Source of the DNA: Halalkalicoccus sp. CGA53
Lineage (GTDB): Archaea > Halobacteriota > Halobacteria > Halobacteriales > Halalkalicoccaceae
DNA: 64,000 nucleotides
Reading direction: 5' to 3'
Assembly: GCF_036429475.1 (NCBI RefSeq)
Contig: NZ_CP144125.1
Location: 372,001 to 436,000, forward strand
Shown: positions 8,285 to 35,773 of the stretch, piece after piece
Layout of the letters: the number at the start of each line of letters is the position of its first letter
Position numbering within the stretch: position 1 is the stretch's first letter
The notes under the pieces: model-generated
Databases searched by the model: none
What the model saw: only the letters and a program-made list of their open reading frames with translations
Told to the model about the DNA's origin: nothing
Program-made: the position numbers and the translations under genes

Positions 8285-8349
8285 CGAGTAGAGCTGGCGC
8301 TGGAGAAGCGTAGCGGGCAAGGGTGACGCTGCCGCGTCACCCGAATGCA

Positions 8350-9234
8350 ATGTTCCCATTTGAATTGCTTAGCTCAGAGGCGAGCGCCGCGAACCTGCTA
8401 CAGCAGGTTCGCTGGCGTGACGGCCTCTACTGCCCGCGCTGCCAGTCTGAGTCGGTGATCAAACACGGCAGCTTTCGAGAGTATCAGCGGTATCTCTGTA
8501 AGGATTGCGACCGCACGTTCAACCCAAAGACCGGCACGATCTTCGCGCACGCGAAGATCGGCCTCGATAAGCTCTTGTTCGCGTTCTACTTGTTGCTCCG
8601 GTTCAACACGAGTATCCGCCAACTTGACGCTGAACTTGACGTGTCGTATCGGTCGCTTCGGCGGCGCGTCGAGCAGTTCGCCAGAACGCTCGACGCGCCA
8701 GCCATCGATCTCGTGGGGCCCGTCGAAATCGACGAAGTCTACGTGACTGCGGGGTTGAAAGGCCGCGAGCGCGACTCCCGGTCGCGCTCGCGTGGGCTCT
8801 CGAAACGTGGTCGCGGAAGCTATGCTCAGGACAAGCCACCAGTGTTCACACTCGTTGATCGTGGTAGCGACCAGCGATACGTCGTCCCAGCGAAATCCGC
8901 TGATGAATCGACCGTTCGACTCCTCCTCGGCGACTGCGAGGAGGAGTCGCTCACTGTCTACACTGACGGATTTCGAGCATACGATCCACTCGAAGAGGAC
9001 GAGAACTACCAGCGAGAAGCCGTGATTCATAGCGAGGGCGAATATGTCGATGGAGACGCACACGTGAACACCTGCGAGAGCCACGCGTCGCTTCTGCGAC
9101 GGTGGCTCTCGCCCCATCGGGGCGTCTCAAAAGACAAGCTCACACCGTATCTCAGAGCGTTCCAGCTTCGCCGAAGAATCTTACGAAAACCCGGTCAAGA
9201 AGCTCTCGAAGAGGTCGTTCGAACTGTACTCTGA
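8350..9234 (+). CDS. IS1595 family transposase
   Basis: A 294-residue DDE-type transposase. An N-terminal zinc ribbon (CPRCQSES near residues 29-36, CKDCDRTF near 50-57) precedes the RNase H-like domain, whose first catalytic Asp lies in VEIDEVYV. The second is in the TVYTDGFRAYD segment, and the C-terminus has VNTCESHASLLRRWLSPHRG, containing the N/E-H box of IS1595. The ATG at 8350 is preferred to a GTG at 8323, which would lie in a small hairpin (GGTGACGC…GCGTCACC). It moves the element by cut-and-paste. The frame is intact. Confidence 0.9.
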   Translation: MFPFELLSSEASAANLLQQVRWRDGLYCPRCQSESVIKHGSFREYQRYLCKDCDRTFNPKTGTIFAHAKIGLDKLLFAFYLLLRFNTSIRQLDAELDVSYRSLRRRVEQFARTLDAPAIDLVGPVEIDEVYVTAGLKGRERDSRSRSRGLSKRGRGSYAQDKPPVFTLVDRGSDQRYVVPAKSADESTVRLLLGDCEEESLTVYTDGFRAYDPLEEDENYQREAVIHSEGEYVDGDAHVNTCESHASLLRRWLSPHRGVSKDKLTPYLRAFQLRRRILRKPGQEALEEVVRTVL

Positions 9235-19360: not shown

Positions 19361-20500
19361 TTACCGGACCTTTCCTCTCGCCTGTACCGCCCAGAACTCT
19401 TCGACCCGGTCATCGCGAACGCCGATGATGAGGTCGTGGAGGTTAATCGTCGTACAGACATGGGGGACAATGAATTCCAGTCGGTCGCCGACCGCAAACG
19501 ACTCGTCTGAGGCGCTGGTGTCAATCCAACCGTGTTCCTCACTGGCGTTGACGTACTCGATGTCGTCACGATTCTTGGGGACTGGCATTTGAGGTTTATC
19601 CAGCGAGAACGTCTTGCTTCCCCCGTCGACTATGAGTCTATCGTCGTCCGGTACGGAGATGACCGTCGTGAGGACCGTCGCCGCACAGTCGTCCTTCGAC
19701 ACCTCCCACGGCCGGAGTTCAAGTTCCCCGACGTCGTTGAAGGGGTACATTCCCGGATTGATCTCTGTGACCACCGGATGCTTGCCACTGTACCCTGACG
19801 TCGCTGTCCCGCCGACCTTCACCTCTTCTACGGAGATTCCAGCAGCCTCGATGTCCTCGACCACGTTCTGGGCTAATTCCATCGCCTCCCAGCACAGCTC
19901 GTCGAACTCCGATTCGGTCTCGGCTTCGGCTTTCACGTGCGACTCGTACGCGAGGACGCCGTCGAACTCAAGATTGGCCGCCTCGTCGACCCGTTCCGCG
20001 AGAGCCACGGCCTCGGGGCCAGGACCGACGCCAGTTCTATGCAATCCCACGTCGATCTCAAGGATGACGTCGACCGTCGTTTCGTGGTCGCGAGCGGCGT
20101 CCTGGAGGATGTCTATCGTCGCGGCCGAGTCAACTGTCGTCGCCAGCTTCTCGACCTTCTGCGAGAGCCAACAGAACCGGTCGAGTTTCCGTTCGCCGAC
20201 GACCTGATACGAGAGATAGATGTCGTCGATTCCGTTTCGCGCCATCGTTTCCACCTCTCCCAGTGTTTGACAGCAGATACCGCCACCACCCGTCATCCCG
20301 TCTTCGAGTGCCGCGAGTTCGGCGTTCTTGTGTGTCTTGACGTGTGAACGGAGCACGACGTCGTTCTTGTCGGCGAAAGCGACGTATTGTTCGATGTTTC
20401 GCTCCATCGTATCGATATCGCCGAGCAACGCCGGGGTTTCGAGATCATCGACCGGTTGATAGATCGTCGGTCCCATCTCGTCTGTCGTCCTAATAGACAT
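19361..20500 (-). CDS. DSD1-family PLP enzyme (D-threonine aldolase / D-serine dehydratase-like)
   Basis: A fold-type III PLP enzyme of about 379 residues with an alanine-racemase-like barrel. The Schiff-base lysine lies in SHVKTHKN (around residue 55), and EIDVGLHRTG and GGTATSG are phosphate/PLP-binding elements. The C-terminal domain has the metal-binding His-x-Cys pair in VPHVCTTINLHD, typical of metal-dependent D-threonine aldolases and D-serine dehydratases. It acts on D-hydroxy amino acids in the cytosol. I chose MSIRTTDEM as the start. Genes on either side do not specify the substrate. Confidence 0.82.
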   Translation of the reverse strand: MSIRTTDEMGPTIYQPVDDLETPALLGDIDTMERNIEQYVAFADKNDVVLRSHVKTHKNAELAALEDGMTGGGGICCQTLGEVETMARNGIDDIYLSYQVVGERKLDRFCWLSQKVEKLATTVDSAATIDILQDAARDHETTVDVILEIDVGLHRTGVGPGPEAVALAERVDEAANLEFDGVLAYESHVKAEAETESEFDELCWEAMELAQNVVEDIEAAGISVEEVKVGGTATSGYSGKHPVVTEINPGMYPFNDVGELELRPWEVSKDDCAATVLTTVISVPDDDRLIVDGGSKTFSLDKPQMPVPKNRDDIEYVNASEEHGWIDTSASDESFAVGDRLEFIVPHVCTTINLHDLIIGVRDDRVEEFWAVQARGKVR

Positions 20501-20783
20501 ATCTCGATGAAGGCCCCTTGGATACAATAACATGGGGTTTTAACAAAAGATGATAGCAGATCCTGTTCAGTACCGGCGCGATTATTCATAGAGATCCTGC
20601 GACCGTCGTAAAGAGCTGGATTGACGGAACACGTCAGCAAGATCCGCAATTCTAAAACGGCTGATTCAACCAATTCGGCTTGAATATAATATGGGTCCCA
20701 TGTTCTAAGTCTTGCACGCCGATTCAACATATCTTTATTCTGTCATACTGGAAAGTATGAGGATCTACGCTAATCCCTATGAA

Positions 20784-21005
20784 TTAATCCGGATCAGTAT
20801 CGTCATCCTCCTCTTCCGGCACTTCCTCGGTATCGTCTTCTTCTTCGTCTAATTCAGGTTCGTCCTCTCCAGGCTGTTCTGCGGCATCGTCCTCCTCTTC
20901 AGCATCGTCCCCTGCTGCTTCGGATTCCTCACCCTCATTATCTGTACAACCTGCAAGGAGTAGTGTTCCTGTTCCAATCGCCAGTATAAACGATCTTCGT
21001 ATCAT
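20784..21005 (-). CDS. Short acidic lipoprotein
   Basis: A 73-residue protein with the lipobox LLLAGC (Cys near residue 20) after MIRRSFILAIGTG, and a tail almost entirely of Asp/Glu. A membrane-anchored acidic stalk with no folded domain. It follows the CuA lipoprotein gene on the same strand after a 230-bp gap, so co-transcription is uncertain. Function unknown. Confidence 0.6.
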   Translation of the reverse strand: MIRRSFILAIGTGTLLLAGCTDNEGEESEAAGDDAEEEDDAAEQPGEDEPELDEEEDDTEEVPEEEDDDTDPD

Positions 21006-21235
21006 GCCCTTTGATCTCACCTCGGAGTGATAGTATTATGGGTATAGGGATTTCTCGACAGCTGAGGCAAATACGGATAAAACTGCACTATTGAATAGTG
21101 GTGGTTCAGCACTACCGTCAATCCTATGTGCCCTGTCAGGAGTTCTCAACGACGATCCTCAGCGTCGGTTCGAATAGTTCGCGCTCAGAGACCGTATTCA
21201 ACACGGCAGATAAAACTGGAGGTAGCTTCGCGTAG

Positions 21236-21685
21236 CTATTCCTCAACAAGGAAGGTACCAGTCATCCCGGTATGACCGTCACTGCACGGAACCGTGCATC
21301 TAATTTCGAACTCTCCTGGCTCGTCAGCAAGAAAGACCGTTGAATCGACTGCACCTCGTGTTGCTTCGACTTCTACCCCATAGGTTTCGATTCCAAATCC
21401 GTGACCCATGTGGTATCCATCATCGAGCGAGGTCATTGCCAGACCGACCTGATCGTCCAGCGAGACCGTCACTGGTTCGTCGGATCCGGGACTAAACTCA
21501 TACGAGCGAGCTTCTACGTATATTTCTTGGTCGACATCTCCTTCAAAATCCACCCTACTGTGCCACGAATCCTCCGAAACCTCACTCTCATCGTCTTCCT
21601 CTTCCGGTTCGTCGTCACCTTGGATGCAACCGGTCGCACTCACTATCGGCAAACTCGCGATAGTTAGCAATTTACGCCGTTTCAA
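21236..21685 (-). CDS. CuA-type cupredoxin lipoprotein
   Basis: About 149 residues, starting at a TTG eight bases after the preceding stop (MKRRKLLTIASLP) with a lipobox ending SATGC (Cys20). An acidic linker precedes a single cupredoxin domain. The binuclear CuA ligands are present: H95 in GYHMGHGFG, and C130, C134, H138 and M141 in CTVPCSDGHTGM. The C-x3-C-x3-H-x2-M spacing and the 35-residue gap from the first His are those of cytochrome oxidase subunit II. It lacks the two N-terminal TM helices of CoxB. Probably an outer-face one-electron carrier. It is the last gene of the Mo-hydroxylase operon. Confidence 0.75.
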   Translation of the reverse strand: MKRRKLLTIASLPIVSATGCIQGDDEPEEEDDESEVSEDSWHSRVDFEGDVDQEIYVEARSYEFSPGSDEPVTVSLDDQVGLAMTSLDDGYHMGHGFGIETYGVEVEATRGAVDSTVFLADEPGEFEIRCTVPCSDGHTGMTGTFLVEE

Positions 21686-21692
21686 GATTATC

Positions 21693-22682
21693 TCATTTAG
21701 CGCTTGCGAGCCCTCGCTCCAGAACGTTTCGAGCCAAGGGGATCTTGTACTCGTTCGTCGGATACGGGTCAGCATTCGGTAGAATCGATTCTGCTGCCTG
21801 CTCGATTCTCGACTCGCTTAATTCGTTCCCATTGATCACTTCTTCTGCTTCTGTCAACCGTTTCGGAACCGGTGCGAGCCCGTTACTAACCAATCTCGAA
21901 TCAGAAACCGATCCCCCGGAATTCGAGATCGTGACAGCCAAGTTCAAGAGTGCGAAGTCCCATGCCTCACGATCACGAACCTTCTCGTAGTAATACGTCG
22001 CTCCCTGCCACGTAGCGGGGACGATTATCTCTTTGAGGACCTCTCGCTGTGAGAGGGTGTTCATCACAGTTATATTGGTTTCCGGGCCGACGAAGAAATC
22101 TTCGACAGACTGCCTTCGCTCTCCAGAGGGGCCCTCTATGAGGACCTCTGCGTCCAGTGCGATCAGTGCGGGCGCAACGTCTGAAGGGTTCGCAGTAATA
22201 CAGCGAGAATAATCGGTAAGAGCATGCTCACGTGCGTCCCCGGTCGTCGCATAGCACGTGTTTCCACCTGCTCGATAGCAGTCGAAATCTTCTCGATAGT
22301 ACCAGCATCGAGAGTCCTGCGCTAGGTTCCCACCAATCGTTCCTTGGTTTCGAATCTGCGGTGTGGCGACTGCGTCAGCTGATTCTGCGATAATAGGGTA
22401 GTCGTCCTGAACCATACCATCCCGGCTGACATCGCTCAGTGATGTTAGTGCACCTATACGTAGGCCCCCATCGTCCGATTCCTCTACTCCATGGAGGTCA
22501 TCGATGTTTTTCAGATCTACAACAACATCCGGAGCACGAGAGCGGTTTTTCAACCACTCCATTTCGTCTGTGTTCCCCGCAATAAGGGTAGCGTCTCCGC
22601 CGTACTCCTCAAGGACGCTAATCGCGTCACTCACGGAGCTGGCATCGACGTGCCTGTGCGGGGGAATCATGTCGTCTTGCAT
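21693..22682 (-). CDS. Mo-hydroxylase FAD subunit (CoxM/HcrB/PaoB-like)
   Basis: A 329-residue FAD-binding subunit of the xanthine-oxidase family. The FAD motifs are LIAGNTDEMEWL (about 33-44) and ATPQIRNQGTIGGNLAQDS (106-124). An insertion with four cysteines (C126, C135, C143, C161) follows directly, as in HcrB and PaoB where a [4Fe-4S] cluster sits, although the spacing differs. It transfers electrons from the [2Fe-2S] subunit to FAD. It starts five bases after the catalytic gene, on the same transcript. No signal peptide, so any export would be as a complex with the Tat-bearing small subunit. Confidence 0.88.
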   Translation of the reverse strand: MQDDMIPPHRHVDASSVSDAISVLEEYGGDATLIAGNTDEMEWLKNRSRAPDVVVDLKNIDDLHGVEESDDGGLRIGALTSLSDVSRDGMVQDDYPIIAESADAVATPQIRNQGTIGGNLAQDSRCWYYREDFDCYRAGGNTCYATTGDAREHALTDYSRCITANPSDVAPALIALDAEVLIEGPSGERRQSVEDFFVGPETNITVMNTLSQREVLKEIIVPATWQGATYYYEKVRDREAWDFALLNLAVTISNSGGSVSDSRLVSNGLAPVPKRLTEAEEVINGNELSESRIEQAAESILPNADPYPTNEYKIPLARNVLERGLASAK

Positions 22683-22687
22683 GCAAT

Positions 22688-25093
22688 TTACACCTCCGCC
22701 TCACCGTTTTCGAGTGCATCGAGTACCTTGTTCGGAAGCATGGGTGGCTCAAGATCTGTGCCGAGGGCGTTGTAGACCGCATTGGCGACCGCAACGGCAC
22801 CGGCACCGTAGGGTGGCTCACCGATACCCTTCGCTCCGTGAGCACCGAAGGGATCAGGCTCGTCAACAGCGCTTCCATCAGTAGATCCATAATCCAGAAT
22901 GGACGGAGTCTTGTTGGTGTACCAGTCAGTATTGTAGGGGATGCCCGTTTCTTCGTCGAAATTATAGTGCTCGTACAACGCGTAACCCAGCCCCTGTAAT
23001 AGTCCACCTTCGACCTGGCCTTTAACGCTGATCGGATGTATCACAGTACCACAGTCGGAGACACCACGCAGATCCTCAACGACTATATTCCCGGTTGCGA
23101 TATCGATGGAGACCTCAGCCATCCCAGCACAGTACGAACGGACCATTGCTTCGCCCCCAGTATCCTCGGGAGAAGTAAACCCGAAAGCAACGAGTCCCTC
23201 GCCGATAGCATCCTGAGCACCCGCGATAGTCACAGGATTGAGGTCGTCTTCTTCTGGAATCTCCTCGCCAGAGTACCTACCCCCGAGTTCAACTGCGAGT
23301 TCCGCCGCTTCAGCGAATGTTAGTCCGGAGCCTTCGTCTTCTTCGTGATATACTTCGCCTCCTTCCACTACGTATTCATCAGCTTCTCCACCTAGTTCCT
23401 CCGCTGCAATCTCCTGTAGATACTCGATAGCTGTTTCCGCCGCTCTATGTTGGGTCAAGCTTTCAGTGAATATGGTGTTTGAGCCAGCCTGAATTACAGA
23501 CCACGATTGGTTGTCATTTCGTCCCCATTTGACAACGACATCTTCCCACGGTACTCTGAGTGTTTCAGCGGCAGCACGCGAAACCCCTGCGTAAGAATAC
23601 GTGCCTAGATTTCCAATTCCCGTTCGGACCTCTACCTCGCCTTCGGGTGTGATGACGATTAGACCGTCGAAACCAACGGAACCAGCACCGTGCTCAGCCA
23701 CACCCATACCGACACCGATCAGACGGCCATCTTCGATAGATCCGTTCCGTTCTACACGTTCATCGTACTCGAAATCTTCAGCGATCACGTCGAGCGCCTC
23801 CACCATGTACGCTGAAGTATTCGGTGCTTGGCTCTCCCCGATGGGATCTCCGTGGTCAGCTGCATTCATTCTCCACAGGTCAAACACGTCGATTCCCAGT
23901 TCATCGGCGGCTTTGCCCATCGTAGGTGCAAGCGCCAACGCTAACTGATTCTCTCCTGGACCTCGCATGGCCCAGCGTTTCGGAGTGTTAGTGTACACTC
24001 CACATCCTTCAACGCTCATGTTCGGTGGGTTGAATAGTGCTGAGGCGGAGGTCGCTGCAGAATTGATACCGTTCAAACAACCTGTTTCATACCCACCGGC
24101 ATCCCCGATCATCTGAATATCTATCGCCGTCATCTCGCCGTCACTAGTGAAGCCGATCCGGAATTTGAAGATTACCTGGGTTCGACCGTTACCCCAGAAG
24201 AACTCCTCTTTCCGCGTTCCACGAAGTTTCACGGGTCGGTTCGCTTCGCGAGAGAGAATCGCCGGAGCAGCCATGGCTGGGTAAGCACTCGCTTTCGAAC
24301 CGAACCCACCACCACAGTAGTTCGCGATGAACGTGAGATCGTCGAGTTCCATCTCGAGATAGCCAGCTAAACCAGCCGCAGCCGTTTGGACACTCTGGCA
24401 AGAGGCGTAAACGGTGAGATCTCCGCTGCTGTCCCAGTCTGCGACGGTCGAGCGCGGCTCCATTGGGTTCTGAGGAACCGAATGCGCCCGTTGGACGTCT
24501 TCGATGATTACATCTGCCTCGCTGAATCCCTCGTCTACATCACCGAAAGACCAGCCGTAGTTCATCTCGCCCGGATTCTCCGGGAAATCGCCACTGAAAT
24601 CGGCCTCGTCCCACTTTATTGTCTGTACCTCACCGTCGTCTCCAGGAGCGTTGCCGTCTAATCGGGCGTTCGGTCCACCTGGCTTCAGGGTCTCGATTGG
24701 ATCGATTACATGCTCGAGAACCCGATACTCCACGTCTATTGCTTCGACGGCAGCAGCAGCAGTGTACTCGTCGACTGCCGCCACGGCTGCGACTGGTGTT
24801 CCATAACAGCGAGGTTCCTGATCGAACGCAGGCTGCATCGATTCGATTCCATCCGATTGCTCACCTCCCGGCGCGTCTTCGAACGTAACGACCGCCTCTA
24901 CCCCCGACATTTGTTCCGCTTCAGATGTATCAATATGCTCAACAAGCGCGTGAGCGTACGGCGACTTCACTGTCTTCGCGTGAAGCATATTGTCAAGCAT
25001 GTAATCCTCGGCGTATCTCGCTCGCCCAGTTACCTTCGCAACGGAGTCTGGTGGAGTGAAATCCTGACCGATGTACATATAATCTTCAGACAT
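22688..25093 (-). CDS. Mo-hydroxylase catalytic molybdopterin subunit (xanthine dehydrogenase family)
   Basis: An 801-residue large subunit. The N-terminal aldehyde-oxidase domain begins DSVAKVTGRARYAEDY. Cofactor motifs CGGGFGSKASAYPAMA (about 278-293) and MRGPGENQ (about 374-381) are present, and the catalytic glutamate is in AKGIGEPPYGAGA near the C-terminus. It lacks the AYRCSF active-site loop of form-I CO dehydrogenase, so it is not a CO dehydrogenase. No signal peptide. The ATG at 25093 (MSEDYMYIG) is two bases past the upstream stop, indicating translational coupling. The reaction is probably hydroxylation of an aldehyde or aromatic heterocycle; substrate unknown. Confidence 0.9.
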   Translation of the reverse strand: MSEDYMYIGQDFTPPDSVAKVTGRARYAEDYMLDNMLHAKTVKSPYAHALVEHIDTSEAEQMSGVEAVVTFEDAPGGEQSDGIESMQPAFDQEPRCYGTPVAAVAAVDEYTAAAAVEAIDVEYRVLEHVIDPIETLKPGGPNARLDGNAPGDDGEVQTIKWDEADFSGDFPENPGEMNYGWSFGDVDEGFSEADVIIEDVQRAHSVPQNPMEPRSTVADWDSSGDLTVYASCQSVQTAAAGLAGYLEMELDDLTFIANYCGGGFGSKASAYPAMAAPAILSREANRPVKLRGTRKEEFFWGNGRTQVIFKFRIGFTSDGEMTAIDIQMIGDAGGYETGCLNGINSAATSASALFNPPNMSVEGCGVYTNTPKRWAMRGPGENQLALALAPTMGKAADELGIDVFDLWRMNAADHGDPIGESQAPNTSAYMVEALDVIAEDFEYDERVERNGSIEDGRLIGVGMGVAEHGAGSVGFDGLIVITPEGEVEVRTGIGNLGTYSYAGVSRAAAETLRVPWEDVVVKWGRNDNQSWSVIQAGSNTIFTESLTQHRAAETAIEYLQEIAAEELGGEADEYVVEGGEVYHEEDEGSGLTFAEAAELAVELGGRYSGEEIPEEDDLNPVTIAGAQDAIGEGLVAFGFTSPEDTGGEAMVRSYCAGMAEVSIDIATGNIVVEDLRGVSDCGTVIHPISVKGQVEGGLLQGLGYALYEHYNFDEETGIPYNTDWYTNKTPSILDYGSTDGSAVDEPDPFGAHGAKGIGEPPYGAGAVAVANAVYNALGTDLEPPMLPNKVLDALENGEAEV

Positions 25094-25095
25094 GA

Positions 25096-25782
25096 TTACA
25101 TCCTCTCCGCTGCTTCTAGTACACCCTGAATCTCCTGTTCGTAATTTCCGCACCGACAAAGAACACCTGATAACGCTTGACGGACCTCTTCGCGCGACGG
25201 ATCACCATTCTCATCCAACAAGGCCTTTCCAGACATGATCATTCCAGGAGTACAGTAAGCACACTGTCCACCCATGGTTTCGATGAACGCTTCTTGCAGG
25301 GGGTGGAGCTGGCCGTTTTCCTCTAACCCTTCAATGGTGACGATCTCTTTTCCAACTGCGTCACGAGTGAAGTACGTACAGCCATAGATGGGCTCACCAT
25401 CTACCTCGATGGTACAGGCACCACACATCGCTCGATCACAGCCAAACTTCCCGCCAGTAAGACCCATCTTGTACCGAAGAGTCTCCAGTAGGCGCTCTTG
25501 ATCGTCAACGTTCACGTGGCGGGTTTCACCGTTGACGTTCAATTGGATCTGATTCGAGAAACGCTCTCGGAGGGTCGGCTCCGCGGCGACTCTACTTTGG
25601 CGGATGTTGTTGAACAGGTATACGTTGGCGGCAACAACACCACCCCCGATCACACCCTTGATCGTATCGCGACGAGAAAGGCTGAAACGAGTTTCTTCAC
25701 CATCAGACCTTCCACCATCCGTTGCAATTGATGGACAATCGCTACATGTCTCTTCATCGGTGCACTTGTCACCCTTTACCAT
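25096..25782 (-). CDS. Mo-hydroxylase [2Fe-2S] subunit with Tat motif
   Basis: A 228-residue subunit. The plant-type cluster is C115, C120, C123, C135 (FGCDRAMCGAC) and the helical cluster is C174, C177, C209, C211 (GQCAYCTPG, VLCRCGN). The N-terminus is unusual: CTDEETCSDC (C7, C13, C16) precedes a twin-arginine motif SRRDTIKG (36-43) and the hydrophobic stretch VIGGGVVAANVYLF. E. coli PaoA and related small subunits also carry the Tat signal that exports the whole complex. No obvious cleavage site follows, so it may stay as a membrane anchor. First gene of the four-gene operon; start taken at MVKGDKC. Confidence 0.88.
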   Translation of the reverse strand: MVKGDKCTDEETCSDCPSIATDGGRSDGEETRFSLSRRDTIKGVIGGGVVAANVYLFNNIRQSRVAAEPTLRERFSNQIQLNVNGETRHVNVDDQERLLETLRYKMGLTGGKFGCDRAMCGACTIEVDGEPIYGCTYFTRDAVGKEIVTIEGLEENGQLHPLQEAFIETMGGQCAYCTPGMIMSGKALLDENGDPSREEVRQALSGVLCRCGNYEQEIQGVLEAAERM

Positions 25783-26068
25783 ACCCCAATGTCTGTGTTC
25801 GCACAATAATAATAGGTCCGGTTGCGGATCGATTCTCTGTAAGTACAAACTCAGCTCTAGCCGTTTTTATGATATTCTCCGAGGATGTTATTAGATGGAT
25901 TGCGCTCCATATAAGAAGAAGATGGTAATCAGTCGGACCCCATCATCTCAAAGAAGAGTCATTTGAAAGAAAGATATCTTATTTTGAATCCTCTGATAGA
26001 ATATTTTACGATAATTGGAGAGAAAATGGGATCAGTAACTTTAATGCAGACTACTGATACCAGTTCTC
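25783..26068. promoter_or_regulatory. Divergent promoter region between Mo-hydroxylase operon and cytochrome b gene
   Basis: About 285 bp, strongly A/T-rich from 25895 to 26050, separating two divergently transcribed units. Both promoters must lie here. I do not see a clear operator palindrome. Confidence 0.4.
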
Positions 26069-27082
26069 ATGGTTGAACTCCTCGGATTCGAAATATTCCG
26101 ATACGAAAGGGCCGGAGGGCAAGAGATAGTGACCGGTCTCAGTTGGGACGTACTCTTGATACTCACCTTTATCGCGTTCTTCGTGTTTTTAATACACTTT
26201 ATCGTGAGGGACATCCTGAATCCAGCGGACCATTCCACTGCAAAAGACGGACCGTCTCCTCAAGAAGTAGAGAGAAATCTGGAACGACAGGGCATAGATG
26301 AAGTCCACAGGTTCACGGCTACTCAGCGAGCATCACACTGGATAATGGCGATCTCCGTGTTCCTCCTGATGCTCTCAGGATTCGTCCTTATGAATCCGAA
26401 TCTCACTCTTCAACCTCCTCTCGAGTTCTCCTGGTTAGACATTCATATAATCTTCAGCATAGTCTTCATCGGATACATAATATTCCATATCGGCCATGTT
26501 GCGTTTAAGGGAACATGGATGGCGATGTGGATCGGGCGTAGAGAGATCGAAGACCTCTGGATTCGATTCAACCATCTTATCGGTCGACGGGATGAATATC
26601 CCAGACAATTCAAGTACCCCAGCGCTCAGAAATTCCTTCACCTCGGAGTAACGGGGGCTTCTATCGGTGTAGTCATCACTGGTATCATACTGTTGCGCCG
26701 AGTCCCTATCCCAGGTCTCTGGGGTGAGACCCGAGAATTCACATTCCTCGGTATACAGTTCGGTATCGGTTTGGGGCAGCCAGGATGGGGACTCGTCACA
26801 TGGTCGTTCGTCCTACATGACCTCTTCGCGATTTTGCTCGTTGGGTTAGTTCTGGGTCACATATATTTCGCGCTGAGACCAGAGGAATGGGGGATCACGA
26901 AAAGCATGATCACTGGGTACGTTTCCCGAAACACGTATGCGGAGAAATACTCGCCTACTAGCTGGGATATCGGTGTTGGTGGTGGAACAGAGACACCAGC
27001 CACAGATGGTGGGTCAAGCGAAACAAGCCCCTCCAAGAAAGCTGATCAGAGGTCAGGCGAAAAAAAGAACCAGTCAGACTAA
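26069..27082 (+). CDS. Membrane b-type cytochrome (formate dehydrogenase gamma / Ni-Fe hydrogenase cyt b-like)
   Basis: 337 residues with about five TM helices. Candidate haem ligands are the histidines in QRASHWIMAISVF (about 90), FHIGHVAFKG (about 143-146) and VLHDLFAILLVGLVLGHIYF (about 251 and 264). The cytoplasmic-to-membrane QRASHW motif is typical of the FdhC/HyaC cytochrome b family, which passes electrons from a periplasm-side dehydrogenase to quinone. The C-terminus is Ser/Thr/Lys-rich. It is divergent from the Mo-hydroxylase operon and is a good candidate for its membrane electron acceptor. Confidence 0.82.
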   Translation: MVELLGFEIFRYERAGGQEIVTGLSWDVLLILTFIAFFVFLIHFIVRDILNPADHSTAKDGPSPQEVERNLERQGIDEVHRFTATQRASHWIMAISVFLLMLSGFVLMNPNLTLQPPLEFSWLDIHIIFSIVFIGYIIFHIGHVAFKGTWMAMWIGRREIEDLWIRFNHLIGRRDEYPRQFKYPSAQKFLHLGVTGASIGVVITGIILLRRVPIPGLWGETREFTFLGIQFGIGLGQPGWGLVTWSFVLHDLFAILLVGLVLGHIYFALRPEEWGITKSMITGYVSRNTYAEKYSPTSWDIGVGGGTETPATDGGSSETSPSKKADQRSGEKKNQSD

Positions 27083-27246
27083 TTGGAAAATCGGTCCACA
27101 CTCCTGCATTATCGGTGCTCATCCACGCTACCATCGCAGTAATCAATAGCAAAAGCTGGCGATTCTTTGAACAGAGAATGTCTTCTCGAAGACTCCAATC
27201 ATGATTACTAGCACTTTTAAGTGGTGTTGCCACAACACGGGTTTAC

Positions 27247-27651
27247 ATGTCGAGTGTTTCCGAGTTCGTCGAAGCAGTTAGTCGTGCAGAAGAGGCGTAT
27301 GAATTCATGATTTCGTATGCGGGGCAGGGTATCGGGAGAGAGATCCCTACCAAGGATGTAAGAGAGATCCGAATTTATCTCAACCAGCTCCGCGAAGCTC
27401 TCCAAGATTCAGTAACGACCGGGAAAGAGATCCCTGAGGAATTCGATATCGATGGAGAGGAGCACTTCTACGACGTCGTAGATCAAATGGAAGTTGAAAG
27501 TGAGGATGCCGTGGAGATACTGGACTTGTTGATCGCGCAGGATCGAATCACCTCCCAGCAGGTCGATAACCTAAACGGGATGTCGGTATTTCAATCGATA
27601 GTCATGAAGATGTTTTTCTTAGAAGAGATAGTCGGCCATCTCGACGAGTGA
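27247..27651 (+). CDS. Unrecognised 134-residue helical protein in the Mo-hydroxylase block
   Basis: An acidic, all-helical soluble protein starting MSSVSEFVEAVSRAEEAYEF. It has no cysteine cluster, TM segment or motif I can assign. Its stop overlaps the first possible start of the mocA gene (GTG 27648), so the two are probably translated together. This pairing hints at a role in molybdenum cofactor maturation or enzyme assembly, for example as a redox-enzyme chaperone. That is inference from position only. Confidence 0.7.
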   Translation: MSSVSEFVEAVSRAEEAYEFMISYAGQGIGREIPTKDVREIRIYLNQLREALQDSVTTGKEIPEEFDIDGEEHFYDVVDQMEVESEDAVEILDLLIAQDRITSQQVDNLNGMSVFQSIVMKMFFLEEIVGHLDE

Positions 27652-27653
27652 AT

Positions 27654-28292
27654 ATGGACGCGTTAGGATTAGTAACCGCTGCGGGGAAATCGACCCGAAT
27701 GGGTGGGTTTCCCAAACCACTTCTCTGGTTCGGTGAAGACAGATTTGTCGAGCGGATCGTGGGAACTTACCAGGAGTCTGGGGTCGATAATCAACTAGTA
27801 GTACTTGGATATGAAGCGGAGACGGTAAACGAGCGTGCGGAGCTTGCGTCAGCCGATAGTGTCTACAACGAGAATTTCGAATCGGGTATGCTCTCCAGTG
27901 TACAGATCGGGGTTCACCACGCAAAAACGCTTGGCGTAGAAGGAATGTTTCTCTGGCCAGTCGATTTTCCATGTGTCACCAGTGATATTGCCAAACAACT
28001 TTGGCAGCGGTTCCAAGATACCGATGCAGATATCGCTGTACCAGCATACCAAGGTGACCGAGGGCATCCAGCTCTGTTTGGTAGGTCCACCTTCACGAAG
28101 CTTCTCGAGGCTCCTGAAACAGAGGGAGCTCGTGCTGTCGTATACTCTGACGAGATCGAAGTGGTAGAAGTAGAGGTCAGTACGAATCGGATCCTAGTGG
28201 ATATCGATACGCCGACGGAGTACTGGGATGCTGTAAAGAATTACGAACCAGACTATAGTTCTGATCGACAGACAGTAAAGCGGGAGAGATAG
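27654..28292 (+). CDS. mocA: Molybdenum cofactor cytidylyltransferase (MocA family)
   Basis: A 212-residue nucleotidyltransferase. The NTP-binding signature LVTAAGKSTRMGGFPK occupies residues 4-19, WPVDFPC has the metal-binding aspartate, and GHPALFG is the family's downstream motif. MocA links CMP (or MobA-like GMP) to molybdopterin for xanthine-oxidase-type enzymes, matching the adjacent XdhC gene and the Mo-hydroxylase. ATG 27654 is preferred; a GTG six bases earlier overlaps the upstream stop. It acts in the cytosol before Tat export. Confidence 0.82.
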   Translation: MDALGLVTAAGKSTRMGGFPKPLLWFGEDRFVERIVGTYQESGVDNQLVVLGYEAETVNERAELASADSVYNENFESGMLSSVQIGVHHAKTLGVEGMFLWPVDFPCVTSDIAKQLWQRFQDTDADIAVPAYQGDRGHPALFGRSTFTKLLEAPETEGARAVVYSDEIEVVEVEVSTNRILVDIDTPTEYWDAVKNYEPDYSSDRQTVKRER

Positions 28293-28490
28293 ATGGTCGC
28301 TGGATTCGATACGTTCGCGCTTTCGATCATGCTCGGCTTGATTATAGGGTCCATCAATGCCTATTTTAGATACGGAGAAGAAGGACGGCGTGCGGCTTTT
28401 CGGACGTTTGTTGGTTGGTTACTGGCGTTCACCATCACAGGACTGATTGCAACACCAGTCGCCGACTGGCTTCTACAGTATATTTACTGA
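28293..28490 (+). CDS. Small two-TM membrane protein
   Basis: 65 residues with two hydrophobic helices (FALSIMLGLIIGSINAYF and FVGWLLAFTITGLIATPVA) flanking an RYGEEGRRA loop. It starts at the base after the mocA stop, so it is part of that operon. No family recognised. A membrane adaptor for the Mo-hydroxylase/cytochrome complex is possible but unproven. Confidence 0.6.
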   Translation: MVAGFDTFALSIMLGLIIGSINAYFRYGEEGRRAAFRTFVGWLLAFTITGLIATPVADWLLQYIY

Positions 28491-28544
28491 CCCATGGTAT
28501 AGCTTACCGGAACGGTTATTTGAGAGGTACTCAATGTGCCAATA

Positions 28545-29030
28545 ATGAATAGTACAAGTACCGTATCTAATAGCACAAACTCGCCAGTGAAAATAACAGG
28601 TGACATTGTTGGGGGTGCATTGTTGACCATCCTGTCACTCATACATATATATGTAATCGGGGCTGGCGGCACTCTTGGATGGATTCTGTTATTAGTGCTA
28701 TGGCCGATACTATCGGGACTGGTGGGTGCTTCTGTAGAGCATTCTGTCGATCCGACAAGGGTAGCAGAACTCCCACTAATTGGTGCAATTGCTGGTGTAT
28801 TTGGTGCTGTTGCGACTACATTGATACTGCTACTACTAGGCTGGTTAGGGATTTGGTCTAGTTTCATCTACAACGAACTCGGCGTCGACCTCGTCACAGT
28901 ATCACTCGGTATAGCGATTCTCTTCACAATCACTTGGACGGTTGCTGGATTCGTAGGCGGATACGTTGTTCAGAGAGGCGTTAAACGCTCTGATGGTAGA
29001 GTGAATCCGAAAGCAGAAAAATCACAGTAG
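28545..29030 (+). CDS. Four-TM membrane protein (DUF5518-like)
   Basis: 161 residues with four hydrophobic helices, glycine-rich (GLVGASVEHSV, GAIAGVFGAVATTL) and a basic C-terminus. It resembles the DUF5518-type small membrane proteins common in haloarchaea. The A/T-rich upstream gap of 54 bp may hold its own promoter. It converges on the FxLYD gene. Role unknown. Confidence 0.55.
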   Translation: MNSTSTVSNSTNSPVKITGDIVGGALLTILSLIHIYVIGAGGTLGWILLLVLWPILSGLVGASVEHSVDPTRVAELPLIGAIAGVFGAVATTLILLLLGWLGIWSSFIYNELGVDLVTVSLGIAILFTITWTVAGFVGGYVVQRGVKRSDGRVNPKAEKSQ

Positions 29031-29080
29031 CTTCGGTATCTAAAGGTCGAATCTAAATTTGGAAGCACGATCAGACCGGT

Positions 29081-29803
29081 TCAGCTAGTTTGTTGGTTTA
29101 CGATCACGATTCTATAATCTGTATAATCTCGAGCGAGGCTAGGCACATCACCTAATGTCGAATACCGAATAGTGAACTCCCCTGTCTCGCCAGGTTCAAG
29201 CGAATCAGGCGAAATTCGATCTGATCGAGCTCCAATTACCTCGCCCTCCTGATTATAGAACGTAGCTAATGCAACAGGCCGTTCTACTGTTCCATCCCCC
29301 GTATTCTCGGCGGTTCCAGAGACTGTGACGCTATCTTGTGCAGTGTGGGACTCTTCGTGCTCAATATCAAACTCAGGAGCAGGCTCCGAAGTACCTGTAA
29401 AGTCAACAGATACCGAGAAACTATCCGGTTGACCTTCTTCGGAATATTTAGCCTCGAAAGGTACTGTCTGACCATCTCCAACTTTCGCTCCGAGCGGTTC
29501 GGTCTCTACCGAACCCACTTCTTCACCGTTTTCATAGAATGAAACGATGACGGTGATATCCGTTATGGCCTCCCCGTAATCGTTCTCTATCTCACCTACT
29601 GCTGTCGTTTCGCCTGCTCGATCCAGATAGATTGATCCTTCTGTAGAGATTACTTCACCAGAAGAATGGAAATCTGCGGGCGAAACATCAATTGAACCGA
29701 TTACTCCAACTCCAACCAATAGAATTGTTGCAGTTACTACTACGATTGTCAATATGACGACTTTGTTGACAATCTTAGGGAAGAGGTCATCCACACCTCT
29801 CAT
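29081..29803 (-). CDS. Membrane-anchored FxLYD-domain protein
   Basis: 240 residues: one N-terminal TM helix (VVILTIVVVTATILLVGVGV), then two beta-sandwich repeats of FxLYD type (AVGEIENDYGEAITDITVIV and VSGTAENTGDGTVERPVALA). The start overlaps the xdhC stop (ATGA), so it is co-transcribed with xdhC. Extracellular orientation is expected. Such domains are structural. A link to the exported Mo-enzyme is inferred from the operon only. Confidence 0.7.
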   Translation of the reverse strand: MRGVDDLFPKIVNKVVILTIVVVTATILLVGVGVIGSIDVSPADFHSSGEVISTEGSIYLDRAGETTAVGEIENDYGEAITDITVIVSFYENGEEVGSVETEPLGAKVGDGQTVPFEAKYSEEGQPDSFSVSVDFTGTSEPAPEFDIEHEESHTAQDSVTVSGTAENTGDGTVERPVALATFYNQEGEVIGARSDRISPDSLEPGETGEFTIRYSTLGDVPSLARDYTDYRIVIVNQQTS

Positions 29804-30645
29804 TCGGATTTTAGTTTTGAGGACTTCAAGTGGTCGGAGGAGCTAGATTCATCAATATTAGTATCTTTCGAGTGGGAACGGTGGGTTGCTCCAGTCCTTA
29901 CAGCTTCAACCTCTGAGAGTATTGAGAGTGCGATCTGCGAGGGTGTTTCGGCACCTAAATCCAATCCAATAGGAGCATACAATTCATTGATATCCATTAA
30001 TTCTTCGTCTCCATCACGCAATCCGTCCCGGATATGGCCCGCTTTGGTTTCAGACGCGACGCATCCAACGTAGAACGCATCACTCTGCAACCCTTCCTTT
30101 GCCGCTCTCTGATCAAGCGTACTATTTCGAGTTGCGATTACGATTGCCGTGTTTGATGTGACAGTCACTTCATCAAATCCTTCCTCCACGTTTGCGTTAA
30201 TTATGCGAGCCGTGGGGAAACGATCAGAAGTTGCAAACTCATCGCGGTCTTCAATTACGACCGGTGAGTATCCTAGCTCTGCCCCAATTCGCACAACTGG
30301 CACTGCGATATGTCCACCACCAACAACAATCAATTGACGTTGTCCTTCGAGTACGTTGATAAATACTTCCATGGAACCGTCACAAACCATCCCTGTGTTT
30401 CCACCAGGTCGAAGTTCCCACGTTTCACGGCGTGGCGTCCGTTCTTCGATTGCTTCTATCGCTGCAGTCTTCGAAAGGTGTTCAACGGTACCTCCTCCAA
30501 TTGTCCCCTCGATCCGACCATCACTGTGGACGATCATTGACGTCCCTACGTCGCGTGGGGCACTGCCCTCAACTGCTGTGACAGTAACTAAGGCAATAGT
30601 TTCGCCTTGTCCGGTCAGCTCATCTACCCTGCTATACTGTCCCAT
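29800..30645 (-). CDS. xdhC: XdhC/CoxI family Mo-cofactor sulfuration/insertion chaperone
   Basis: 281 residues. The N-terminal XdhC domain has ALVTVTAVEGSAPRDVGTSM and EGTIGGGTVEH. The C-terminal Rossmann domain has LIVVGGGHIAVPVVRI and VGCVASETKAGHI. The family binds the molybdopterin-cytosine/guanine cofactor, mediates its sulfuration and inserts it into the large subunit. Start at MGQYSRVDE (30645). The Ser/Lys-rich C-terminal tail is extra. It sits between a small membrane protein and the FxLYD gene on the minus strand, 4-5 kb from its expected client. Confidence 0.88.
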   Translation of the reverse strand: MGQYSRVDELTGQGETIALVTVTAVEGSAPRDVGTSMIVHSDGRIEGTIGGGTVEHLSKTAAIEAIEERTPRRETWELRPGGNTGMVCDGSMEVFINVLEGQRQLIVVGGGHIAVPVVRIGAELGYSPVVIEDRDEFATSDRFPTARIINANVEEGFDEVTVTSNTAIVIATRNSTLDQRAAKEGLQSDAFYVGCVASETKAGHIRDGLRDGDEELMDINELYAPIGLDLGAETPSQIALSILSEVEAVRTGATHRSHSKDTNIDESSSSDHLKSSKLKSE

Positions 30646-30709
30646 TAGTACTGTAAATAGAGGTTTCCCCCAATAAGGCTTTGCCGAGAAATAGTAGAGG
30701 CTGACGACA

Positions 30710-30928
30710 TTAGAATCCAACTTGCCAAGTAAGCCACCCGATTCCGGTTATAGCTATACCCACAAAAATGAGACCACCGACCAACTCAGGAGAGATAGGA
30801 TGGTCATACCCATGGCGGTCGGTGAATACAAGTAGCATCCCAGTAGCAACTCCCCCGAAAAAGATGACTAACCCTATTAATTGGAGTGTATCACTCCTCG
30901 AAAGTATAGACGGAAGTACGGCTGACAT
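30710..30928 (-). CDS. Small two-TM membrane protein upstream of xdhC
   Basis: 72 residues from MSAVLPSILSR, with helices LQLIGLVIFFGGVATGMLLVF (as two blocks) and LVGGLIFVGIAITGIGWLTW around an HGYDHPISPE loop. 64 bp ahead of xdhC on the same strand. No family recognised. Confidence 0.55.
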   Translation of the reverse strand: MSAVLPSILSRSDTLQLIGLVIFFGGVATGMLLVFTDRHGYDHPISPELVGGLIFVGIAITGIGWLTWQVGF

Positions 30929-31019
30929 TGATGCAACCCTTCGTTCCCACATTCAATTAAACTCGGTCATTAGAAGACACCATTTTTACCGTAGTATTCG
31001 TAGAGGGAATATTTGACCC

Positions 31020-31826: not shown

Positions 31827-31962
31827 GCGCACGCTCGGCGAGAGTGGTCTGCGCAACGTTTGAACAGGTTGTCGCTGAGACTGTGGTCGGCGGTATGAGA
31901 GGACACAGCTAGCAGATCTGGACGTTCAAAGGTTACGTCAATCACTCACGCCGAGCGTGCGC
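31827..31962. repeat. 14-bp perfect inverted repeat around a 108-bp insert in the transposase
   Basis: GCGCACGCTCGGCG at 31827-31840 and its exact reverse complement at 31949-31962, extending to 20 of 22 matches inward. The enclosed segment includes 31857-31947. Confidence 0.75.
31857..31947. repeat. Short repeat beside IS5-type debris, copy 2
   Basis: About 91 bp, roughly 78% identical to 16887-16978. Here it lies inside the transposase reading frame. Confidence 0.6.
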
Positions 31963-32719
31963 TTGATCGACGAGAAGACGGTCTCAGACAGTGCTCTCTG
32001 TCCGTAGAGAGTTCCATCGATCCGCGCGTTGTGTGCGTGATCGATGGAACGGAACTCACGGTGTTTGATCAGCGGTCTTACGCCCTCCTCCCTCAGTTTC
32101 TCGTGTAATTGCATCCAATCGTAGCCTTTGTCGGCGGCGAGGCTGTGCAACTCGCCCGCGTTGCGGCGGGCGAGTTGCCAGCCGAACTGGGTATCGTGGC
32201 GTTTCTCGGTCGTACAGTGAACGTCGAGAACAGCCTGTGACTCAGTATCGAAGAGAGCGTTTGTTTTGAGCGTCTGAACCCGATAATCCGTGCGACGGCA
32301 GTAGTGCTTGCTCGCATTTTCGCGGTCGAAAAACGCCGAATCCATCGCTGCATGACCCGAGGGCTCGTGCTGTTGCGCCTGTCCGCGCAGCAGCACGAGC
32401 CATACTGCCATCTTGATTCTATCAAATATCTTGACTAGCGTCGAGTGGTGCGGGAGATCGGCCGCGTCGAGGCCGATCTCCGCTAGTATTTGTGGCATCT
32501 CACTCAAGAGGTCGAACGCTTCGCGGTAGGATTTCTCCAGGTAAATCCGCAGACAGTGGAGTGAAAGGACGGCGTAGTCGGCGAAGCCGCCGCCACCCTG
32601 CGAGGCGGCGACTTCGCCTCGGCCACCAACAGCATTTTTAGCCAACGTCACGACCTTCCCAGTGGAGCGGGAAATCTTCGACATGAACATCGGAAGCTTC
32701 CCGCTTCAACTCCCTAGTT

Positions 32720-33862: not shown

Positions 33863-35773
33863 ATGGGCATTACGGAGGGCGAGGAGGACCCGTTCGAGGA
33901 GCAACGGGCGCGGGTCGACGACTCGATGACGCGGCTCTTTCGCCAGTACGGCGCCGACCAGAAGTACGAGTACGCGGTGGGGCTCCTCGCGAGCGTCGTT
34001 GCGCGGCTGCTCGACCTGATCCCGACGCTGATGCTCGGGGTGGCGATCGACGCGATCTTCCTCGACGACCCGTACACGCTCTTTCTCGTCCCGGACGCGT
34101 GGATCCCGGCGGGTCAGGAAGAGCAGTTCGCGCTCACGATCGGGATCCTCGCCGGGGCGTTCGCACTCGGCGCTCTCTTTCACTGGATCCGGAACTGGGG
34201 CTGGAACGCCTCCGCACAGAACATCACCCACGACATCCGGGTCGACACCTACGAGAAGATGCAGCGGCTCAACATGGAGTTCTTCTCGGACAAGCAAACG
34301 GGTGAACTGATGAGTATCCTCTCGAACGACGTCAATCAGCTCGAGCGGTTTCTCAACGACGGGCTGAACTCCGCCTCGCGGCTGATCGTGATGGTCCTCG
34401 GCATCGGCGGGGTGCTCTTCTACCTGAACTGGCAGCTCGCGCTGATCGCGCTGTTGCCCGCCCCGCTGATAGCGGGGTTCACCTACGTCTTCATCCGGAT
34501 CATCCGCCCGAAGTACAAGAAGATGCGCGCGACCGTCGGCGCGCTCAACTCCAGACTGGAGAACAACCTGGGTGGGATCCAGGTGATCAAGTCCTCGAAC
34601 ACCGAACGGTACGAGGACGATCGCGTCGATGACGCCTCCTACGAGTACTACGACGCCAACTGGGACGCCATCTGGACGCGGATCAAGTTCTTCCCCACGC
34701 TCCAGCTCATATCGGGCATCGGCTTCACGCTCACCTTCCTCGTCGGCGGCTACTGGGTGTTCGCCGGCCCGCCGGGGCCGTTCACGCTCGAGCTCTCGAT
34801 CGGCGTGTTCACCATCTTCGTGCTCTACACCCAGCAGATGATCTGGCCGATGGCGCAGTTCGGTCAGATAATCAATATGTATCAACGCGCGGAGGCCTCA
34901 AGCGCGCGCATCTTCGGGCTGATGGACGAGGCGGGTGTCCTGGAGGAGGATGCCGACGCCCCCGACCTCGAAGTCACGGAGGGGCGCGTCGAGTACGGCG
35001 AGGTCTCGTTCGGCTACGACGAGGAGACGATCATCGATGGCGTGAGCTTCACCGTCGAACCGGGCGAGACCTGTGCGCTCGTGGGTCCCACCGGCGCGGG
35101 CAAGTCGACGATCCTCAAACTGCTGTTGCGGATGTACGACGTCGACGAGGGGAACGTCCTGATCGACGGCACCGATCTGCGAGACGTCTCGCTCTCGTCG
35201 GTCCGCCAGTCGATCGGCTACGTCAGCCAGGACACGTTCATGTTCTACGGAACCGTGCGCGAGAACATCGCCTACGGGACGTTCACCGCGACCGACGAGG
35301 AGATCGTCGAGGCGGCGAAGGCTGCGGAGGCCCACGAGTTCATCGTCGACCTGCCCGAGGGCTACGACACGATGGTCGGCGAGCGCGGCGTCAAACTCTC
35401 GGGCGGCCAGCGCCAGCGTCTCTCGATCGCACGCGGGATTCTGAAGAGTCCGGAGATACTCATCCTCGACGAGGCGACGAGCGACGTCGACACCGAGACG
35501 GAGATGCTGATCCAGCGCAGCCTCGACGCGCTCACGGAGGACCGGACGACGTTCGCGATCGCGCACCGCCTCTCGACGATCAAGGACGCGGAGCAGATCC
35601 TCGTCCTCGACGAGGGGCGGATCGTCGAGCGCGGCACCCACGAGGAGCTGCTCGCGAACGACGGCCTCTACGCCCATCTCTGGGGGGTCCAGGCGGGCGA
35701 GATCGACGACCTCCCCGACGAGTTCATCGAGCGCGCGTCACGGCGGGCCGCGAGAACCGAACTGAACGACTAG
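33863..35773 (+). CDS. ABC transporter, fused permease and ATPase (MsbA/multidrug type)
   Basis: A 636-residue half-transporter exporter that dimerises. The first 330 residues hold six TM helices. The nucleotide-binding domain has Walker [10 protein letters not shown] (about 410-418), signature [14 protein letters not shown] (about 512-525), Walker [11 protein letters not shown] (about 531-540) and H-loop AIAHRLST. It exports lipid-like or drug-like substrates. The frame is intact with an ATG following CGGTA. Confidence 0.92.

What the first reader, a model, noticed from the sequence alone, without database searches (positions are those of the whole stretch)
20784..30928. Exported molybdenum hydroxylase with its own CuA lipoprotein and cytochrome b in a haloarchaeal island
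A four-gene operon (Tat-bearing [2Fe-2S] subunit, catalytic Mo subunit, FAD subunit with four extra Cys, CuA lipoprotein) has gaps of only 2-8 bp. A b-type cytochrome diverges from it, and mocA, xdhC and small membrane genes are nearby. E. coli PaoABC shows this subunit plan can be Tat-exported whole and matured by an XdhC-type chaperone and MocA. Adding a CuA protein and a formate-dehydrogenase-type cytochrome b suggests a new surface respiratory chain of unknown substrate.
Basis: partly seen in the sequence, partly recalled or inferred. Interest (0 to 1): 0.82.

Follow-up and report, generated by a model that had tools for sequence, protein, structure and literature searches.

The report
Exported molybdenum enzyme with cytochrome b
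A salt-loving archaeon carries, on a foreign-looking DNA island, a molybdenum enzyme apparently sent to the cell surface and always found with its own membrane cytochrome, which probably passes its electrons to quinone; this would offer a testable answer to the open question of where such exported enzymes send their electrons.

Summary
20784-30952 encodes an exported-type molybdenum hydroxylase (CoxS with Tat-like signal, CoxL, CoxM), a downstream CuA lipoprotein (gaps 2, 5 and 7 bp), a divergent cytochrome b, MocA and XdhC, in a low-GC island. Orthologues of CoxL (53-56% identity; next best 33%) occur in 6 of 393 other sampled haloarchaeal genomes (Halobellus and one other genus; one further Halobellus was found later). 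All 7 relatives keep CoxSLM, XdhC, MocA, the cytochrome and three unnamed genes, although gene order differs. In the 394-genome sample the cytochrome occurs in exactly the same 7 genomes as this CoxL. All four haem-ligand histidines of E. coli formate dehydrogenase-N gamma are conserved, and the FAD subunit has PaoB's four-cysteine loop. The host genome holds only one enzyme of this superfamily and one cytochrome of this family. Best reading: substrate oxidised at the surface, electrons through Fe-S/FAD to the dihaem cytochrome, then menaquinone. The CuA half fails: no CuA motif near any relative, so CuA is at most a local add-on. The substrate is unknown. The parts are of known kinds, but this pairing seems undescribed: a new variant of a known kind.

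The parts
25096..25782 (-). CoxS: [2Fe-2S] small subunit, 228 aa, N-terminal Tat-like signal SLSRRDTIKGVIGGGVVAANVYLF; S, R, R, I, K, G of the motif invariant in 7/7 orthologues
22688..25093 (-). CoxL: molybdopterin catalytic subunit, 801 aa; conserved GAKGxGEPPYG (catalytic Glu) and clade loop W-x-x-R-G-P-G-[EQ]-N-Q
21693..22682 (-). CoxM: FAD subunit with four invariant Cys (126/135/143/161), aligned one for one with the Cys of PaoB and of a bacterial aldehyde oxidase: probable [4Fe-4S] cluster
21236..21685 (-). CuA-domain lipoprotein, 149 aa, complete CuA ligand motif; only the window has it in this cluster
20784..21005 (-). small acidic lipoprotein, 73 aa; not found in relatives
26069..27082 (+). 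b-type cytochrome, 337 aa, 5 predicted TM helices; H90, H126, H250, H264 align with haem ligands H18, H57, H155, H169 of FDH-N gamma
27247..27651 (+). g134: conserved 134-aa protein of unknown function, predicted helical bundle (pLDDT 84), no confident structural match
27654..28292 (+). MocA-type molybdenum cofactor cytidylyltransferase
28293..28490 (+). small membrane protein, 65 aa; not found in relatives
28536..29030 (+). 4-TM membrane protein, 164 aa, conserved in all relatives
29081..29803 (-). FxLYD-domain protein with one N-terminal TM helix, conserved in all relatives
29800..30645 (-). XdhC-family maturation chaperone
30710..30952 (-). small membrane protein, 80 aa; not found in relatives

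Best explanation
CoxSLM is a PaoABC-like molybdenum hydroxylase. MocA makes its cytosine-dinucleotide cofactor and XdhC inserts the sulfurated cofactor in the cytoplasm. The folded trimer is then carried across the membrane by the Tat signal on CoxS. At the surface CoxL oxidises a still unknown small substrate (aldehyde or heteroaromatic likely). Electrons pass through the two [2Fe-2S] clusters, FAD and a [4Fe-4S] cluster in CoxM to a dedicated dihaem cytochrome b of the formate dehydrogenase-N gamma / hydrogenase type, which anchors the enzyme and reduces menaquinone. In the window only, a CuA lipoprotein has been added at the operon end and may give an alternative exit to copper carriers or an oxidase. 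Shown by sequence: subunits, cofactor motifs, conserved RR, haem-ligand histidines, conserved clustering and co-occurrence. Inferred: export, cofactor loading, the physical complex, electron direction and menaquinone as acceptor.
For: In 394 haloarchaeal genomes the close CoxL orthologue and the cytochrome occur in the same 7 and in no others; if genomes were independent, the chance of identical sets would be 3.6e-15, though only 3 genera in 2 families are involved. All six sampled relatives, plus Halobellus rufus, hold both in one cluster with XdhC, MocA, g134, mem164 and FxLYD, although block order and orientation differ from the window. In all of them the cytochrome heads a run with g134 and MocA. 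The window's genome has one PF02738 enzyme and one PF01292 cytochrome, so neither has another partner of its kind there. All four FdnI haem-ligand positions align with invariant His. CoxM Cys match PaoB's. CoxS SLSRRDTIK resembles PaoA SLTRRDLIK and TatC genes are present. PaoB and PaoC are escorted out by PaoA's signal (PMC4273604), and PaoABC's terminal acceptor was unidentified (PMC3958847).
Against: No protein of this clade is characterised. No signal-peptide predictor was available; the h-region is only moderately hydrophobic and the window's RR lies at residues 37-38, behind a long N-region. The cytochrome model was of low confidence (pLDDT 56) and its fold search gave nothing usable, so the FDH link rests on sequence. 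Three DMSO-reductase-family enzymes elsewhere in the genome could in principle use the cytochrome. No complex could be modelled.
Confidence: 0.72

Rival explanations
1. One reading: CuA and cytochrome b are both essential parts, forming one surface chain from the Mo enzyme to copper carriers or a terminal oxidase.
For: CuA is 7 bp behind CoxM, in the same strand and base composition as the operon, has all CuA ligands and a lipoprotein-type signal.
Against: No CuA motif in 20 kb around any of six relatives, in the three named Halobellus loci or in four extended flanks; the best CuA hits in the class are about 41% identical, and the one full-length match examined is not next to a Mo-hydroxylase.
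Confidence: 0.12
2. The enzyme stays in the cytoplasm and donates to quinone, ferredoxin or NAD; the RR is a conserved anchor or chance, and the cytochrome serves another enzyme.
For: The h-region is modest; CoxL and CoxM have no signal of their own; three DMSO-reductase-family enzymes exist elsewhere in the genome.
Against: S-R-R-x-x-I-K-G is invariant in 7/7, followed by an uncharged stretch and a variable A-x-A-like region; the FDH-N-type cytochrome takes electrons from the outer side (general knowledge); perfect co-occurrence in the sample.
Confidence: 0.1
3. The chain runs in reverse: quinol or another donor feeds the Mo site for a reductive reaction, as in 4-hydroxybenzoyl-CoA reductase.
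For: 4-HBCR alpha is the best single HMM and PDB match of CoxL; 4-HBCR also has an additional [4Fe-4S] cluster and inverted electron flow (title of the reference cited in PMC3958847).
Against: XdhA scores the same (335 v 336 bits); the Cys spacing fits PaoB, and one HcrB Cys has no counterpart; menaquinol is too weak a reductant for such reductions and CoA thioesters are not expected at the cell surface (general knowledge).
Confidence: 0.06

Closest known systems
E. coli PaoABC(D) periplasmic aldehyde oxidoreductase
   Same: Three subunits; Tat signal on the [2Fe-2S] subunit (SLTRRDLIK v SLSRRDTIK); four-Cys loop in FAD subunit; XdhC-family chaperone gene
   Different: Gene order S-L-M, not S-M-L; CoxL is not in PaoC's clade; dedicated cytochrome b, absent next to paoABC in MG1655
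4-hydroxybenzoyl-CoA reductase (HcrCAB)
   Same: Best HMM/PDB match for CoxL; extra Fe-S cluster in FAD subunit
   Different: Cys spacing differs; equivalog cut-offs not reached; HcrABC is a cytoplasmic reductase without a cytochrome partner (general knowledge)
Formate dehydrogenase-N cytochrome b556 gamma (FdnI, 1kqf)
   Same: Four haem-ligand His and the C-terminal M-I-x-G-K-V motif align
   Different: Extra N-terminal TM helix and conserved N-terminal segment; partner is an XO-family, not a DMSO-reductase-family, enzyme
Membrane-bound molybdenum aldehyde dehydrogenase of acetic acid bacteria (PDB 8gy3)
   Same: Exported XO-family enzyme tied to quinone respiration (general knowledge; its chains match here only weakly)
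   Different: That enzyme uses c-type haem subunits rather than a dihaem cytochrome b (general knowledge, not tested here)
Aerobic CO dehydrogenase (CoxSML)
   Same: Same superfamily and domains
   Different: Lacks the form I or form II active-site loop; CO-DH equivalog cut-offs not reached

Membership tests
Xanthine oxidase superfamily, three-subunit molybdenum hydroxylase | Fer2+Fer2_2; FAD_binding_5+CO_deh_flav_C; Ald_Xan_dh_C+MoCoBD_1+MoCoBD_2; catalytic Glu | tested here: met
PaoABC-type exported aldehyde oxidoreductase | Tat signal on the [2Fe-2S] subunit | tested here: inconclusive
   SRRxxIKG invariant in 7/7, PaoA-like; no signal-peptide predictor and no experiment
PaoABC-type exported aldehyde oxidoreductase | Four-Cys [4Fe-4S] loop in the FAD subunit | tested here: met
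   C126/135/143/161 align with PaoB C119/129/138/157
PaoABC-type exported aldehyde oxidoreductase | Large subunit groups with PaoC and passes its equivalog cut-off | tested here: not met
   NF041671 248.7 v cut-off 1180 bits; separate 100/100 clade
PaoABC-type exported aldehyde oxidoreductase | Oxidises aldehydes | not testable with these tools
   needs an enzyme assay
4-hydroxybenzoyl-CoA reductase | Equivalog cut-offs TIGR03193/03194/03195 | tested here: not met
   157.8 v 257.8, 336.4 v 994.6, 180.7 v 404.6 bits
Aerobic Mo-Cu CO dehydrogenase form I | AYxCSFR loop with the Cu-ligating Cys | tested here: not met
   loop reads WAMRGPGENQ / WPQRGPGQNQ
FDH/hydrogenase-type dihaem cytochrome b (PF01292) | Pfam cut-off and four haem-ligand histidines | tested here: met
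   101.9 bits v 30.1; H90/126/250/264 = H18/57/155/169 of FdnI
FDH/hydrogenase-type dihaem cytochrome b (PF01292) | Partner is a formate dehydrogenase or hydrogenase | tested here: not met
   clustered with CoxSLM in the window and all relatives
CuA domain protein | His + C-x3-C-x3-H-x2-M on a cupredoxin fold | tested here: met
   (sequence only)

The most novel reading that the evidence does not exclude
A haloarchaeal surface respiratory complex of a new kind: an XO-family molybdenum hydroxylase permanently docked on a formate-dehydrogenase-type cytochrome b, with (in this lineage) a CuA lipoprotein as a second electron exit, so that one substrate oxidation can feed either menaquinone or a copper/oxidase branch.
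Probability: 0.25. Interest if true: 0.75.

Novelty: new variant of a known kind. Interest (0 to 1): 0.6.

Why it matters
For exported molybdenum hydroxylases such as PaoABC the physiological electron acceptor was unidentified in the paper read here (PMC3958847). This cluster names a concrete, genetically linked candidate, conserved in 8 genomes of three genera, among them culturable, named Halobellus species. It would also show that the formate dehydrogenase/hydrogenase cytochrome b module has been recruited by a different molybdenum enzyme superfamily, another example of modular assembly of respiratory enzymes.

Tried and rejected
Single-sequence scan of genome contigs found no relative; the alignment scan found three Halobellus and one distant bacterial MAG that lacks the cytochrome. 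CuA linkage: rejected for relatives; the one full-length CuA lipoprotein relative examined (G373) lies in an unrelated neighbourhood. g134 fold: helical bundle, no PDB match with E below 0.001. Cytochrome AlphaFold model: too poor to use. Cytochrome search in 295 genomes of the phylum and in 72,556 plasmid records: none besides the window. The first tree contained two rows in a wrong reading frame (L013, L029); the second left them and one short row out and gave the same clade. Literature searches found no description of an XO-family enzyme with this cytochrome type, but the library lacks most subscription papers. CO dehydrogenase identity was rejected by the active-site loop. The ~355-aa thioredoxin/DsbA-like gene of the relatives is not in the window.

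Full report
Observation. The window is G000:C2:372001-436000 of a 4.04-Mb haloarchaeal genome. Reading frames, spacing and families were re-derived. On the minus strand CoxS (25096-25782), CoxL (22688-25093), CoxM (21693-22682) and a CuA lipoprotein (21236-21685) follow each other with gaps of 2, 5 and 7 bp. On the plus strand, diverging from CoxS, lie the cytochrome (26069-27082), a 134-aa protein, MocA, a 65-aa and a 164-aa membrane protein. On the minus strand beyond these are an FxLYD protein and XdhC. The cluster has GC3 of 0.38-0.58, against 0.92 for one flanking gene at 33863-35773, in a low-GC stretch with transposase genes at 8323-9234 and 31938-32690.

Relatives. A search of 394 Halobacteria genomes found CoxL orthologues of 53-56% identity in six genomes besides the window; the next hit is 33%. 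One of the six belongs to a different genus, and all are of a different family from the window's host. In every relative the same neighbourhood holds XdhC, CoxS, CoxL, CoxM, FxLYD, mem164, MocA, g134 and the cytochrome, at 33-73% identity. The order differs: in relatives XdhC precedes CoxS, and the cytochrome-to-mem164 run converges on CoxM, with a ~355-aa DsbA-like gene behind the cytochrome that the window lacks. A partnership kept through rearrangement in two families argues for function.

Co-occurrence. The cytochrome searched over the same 394 genomes is found in the same 7 and in no other. Identical sets by chance would be 3.6e-15 if genomes were independent, which they are not, since five are one genus. 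Eleven of 17 Halobellus genomes and six of seven genomes of the second genus lack the cytochrome, and the nine other genomes of the host's family (three of them incomplete) lack the CoxL, so the cluster comes and goes as a unit. A profile search of 295 genomes of the phylum found only the window, and plasmids none. The host has a single XO-family enzyme and a single PF01292 cytochrome.

Cofactors and path. CoxM's C126, C135, C143 and C161 are invariant in 7/7 and align one for one with Cys of PaoB and of the aldehyde oxidase 5y6q, while HcrB differs at one position. CoxL keeps the catalytic Glu (GAKGxGEPPYG). Its loop WxxRGPG[EQ]NQ differs from CO dehydrogenase loops, and a tree of 33 sequences puts the seven in a 100/100 clade on a long stem apart from PaoC and XdhA. 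The cytochrome profile aligns with FDH-N gamma, with invariant H90, H126, H250 and H264 at the positions of H18, H57, H155 and H169, which from general knowledge are its haem ligands. It has an extra first TM helix with a conserved N-terminal segment, a possible docking element.

Export. RR and the S-R-R-x-x-I-K-G context are invariant in 7/7 CoxS, the PaoA motif is nearly the same, CoxL and CoxM have no hydrophobic segment, and TatC is present. For PaoABC, piggyback export by the PaoA signal has been shown experimentally (PMC4273604), a dedicated XdhC-like chaperone is needed (PMC10609526), and the terminal acceptor was unidentified (PMC3958847). Export here remains an inference; no signal-peptide predictor was available.

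CuA. The lipoprotein has a complete CuA motif and matches Cox2 and NosZ CuA domains. But no C-x3-C-x3-H-x2-M motif occurs in any relative's locus or the flanks read, and the class holds no close orthologue. The core system therefore does not need it. In the window it may be an added electron carrier or an accidental neighbour; its base composition is like the rest of the operon, so it probably arrived with the island.

Judgement. The parts are known kinds; the pairing of an exported-type XO-family enzyme with an FDH-type cytochrome b was not found described in the held literature, so I rate it a new variant of a known kind.

Noticed in passing
window 27247-27651: g134, a 134-aa protein with no Pfam family, conserved in all relatives next to MocA; predicted helical bundle (pLDDT 84). 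Possibly a dedicated assembly factor.
   Followed up: partly
L038 15917-16978, L036 1567-2793: Relatives carry a ~355-aa DsbA-like thioredoxin-fold gene between cytochrome and g134, absent from the window.
   Followed up: partly
window 29081-29803: FxLYD-domain membrane protein conserved in all relatives of the cluster, role unknown.
   Followed up: no
window 19361-20533: D-serine dehydratase / D-threonine aldolase-like PLP enzyme downstream on the same strand, with intermediate GC3 (0.72); not found in the relatives' loci.
   Followed up: no
window 8323-9234 and 31938-32690: IS1595-type and DDE_Tnp_1 transposase genes within or at the edge of the low-GC island.
   Followed up: no
L090 9717-10214: A CuA-like lipoprotein in another haloarchaeon (41% identical) lies beside other lipoprotein and membrane-protein genes, not a Mo-hydroxylase, and lacks the exact C-x3-C-x3-H-x2-M motif.
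   Followed up: partly
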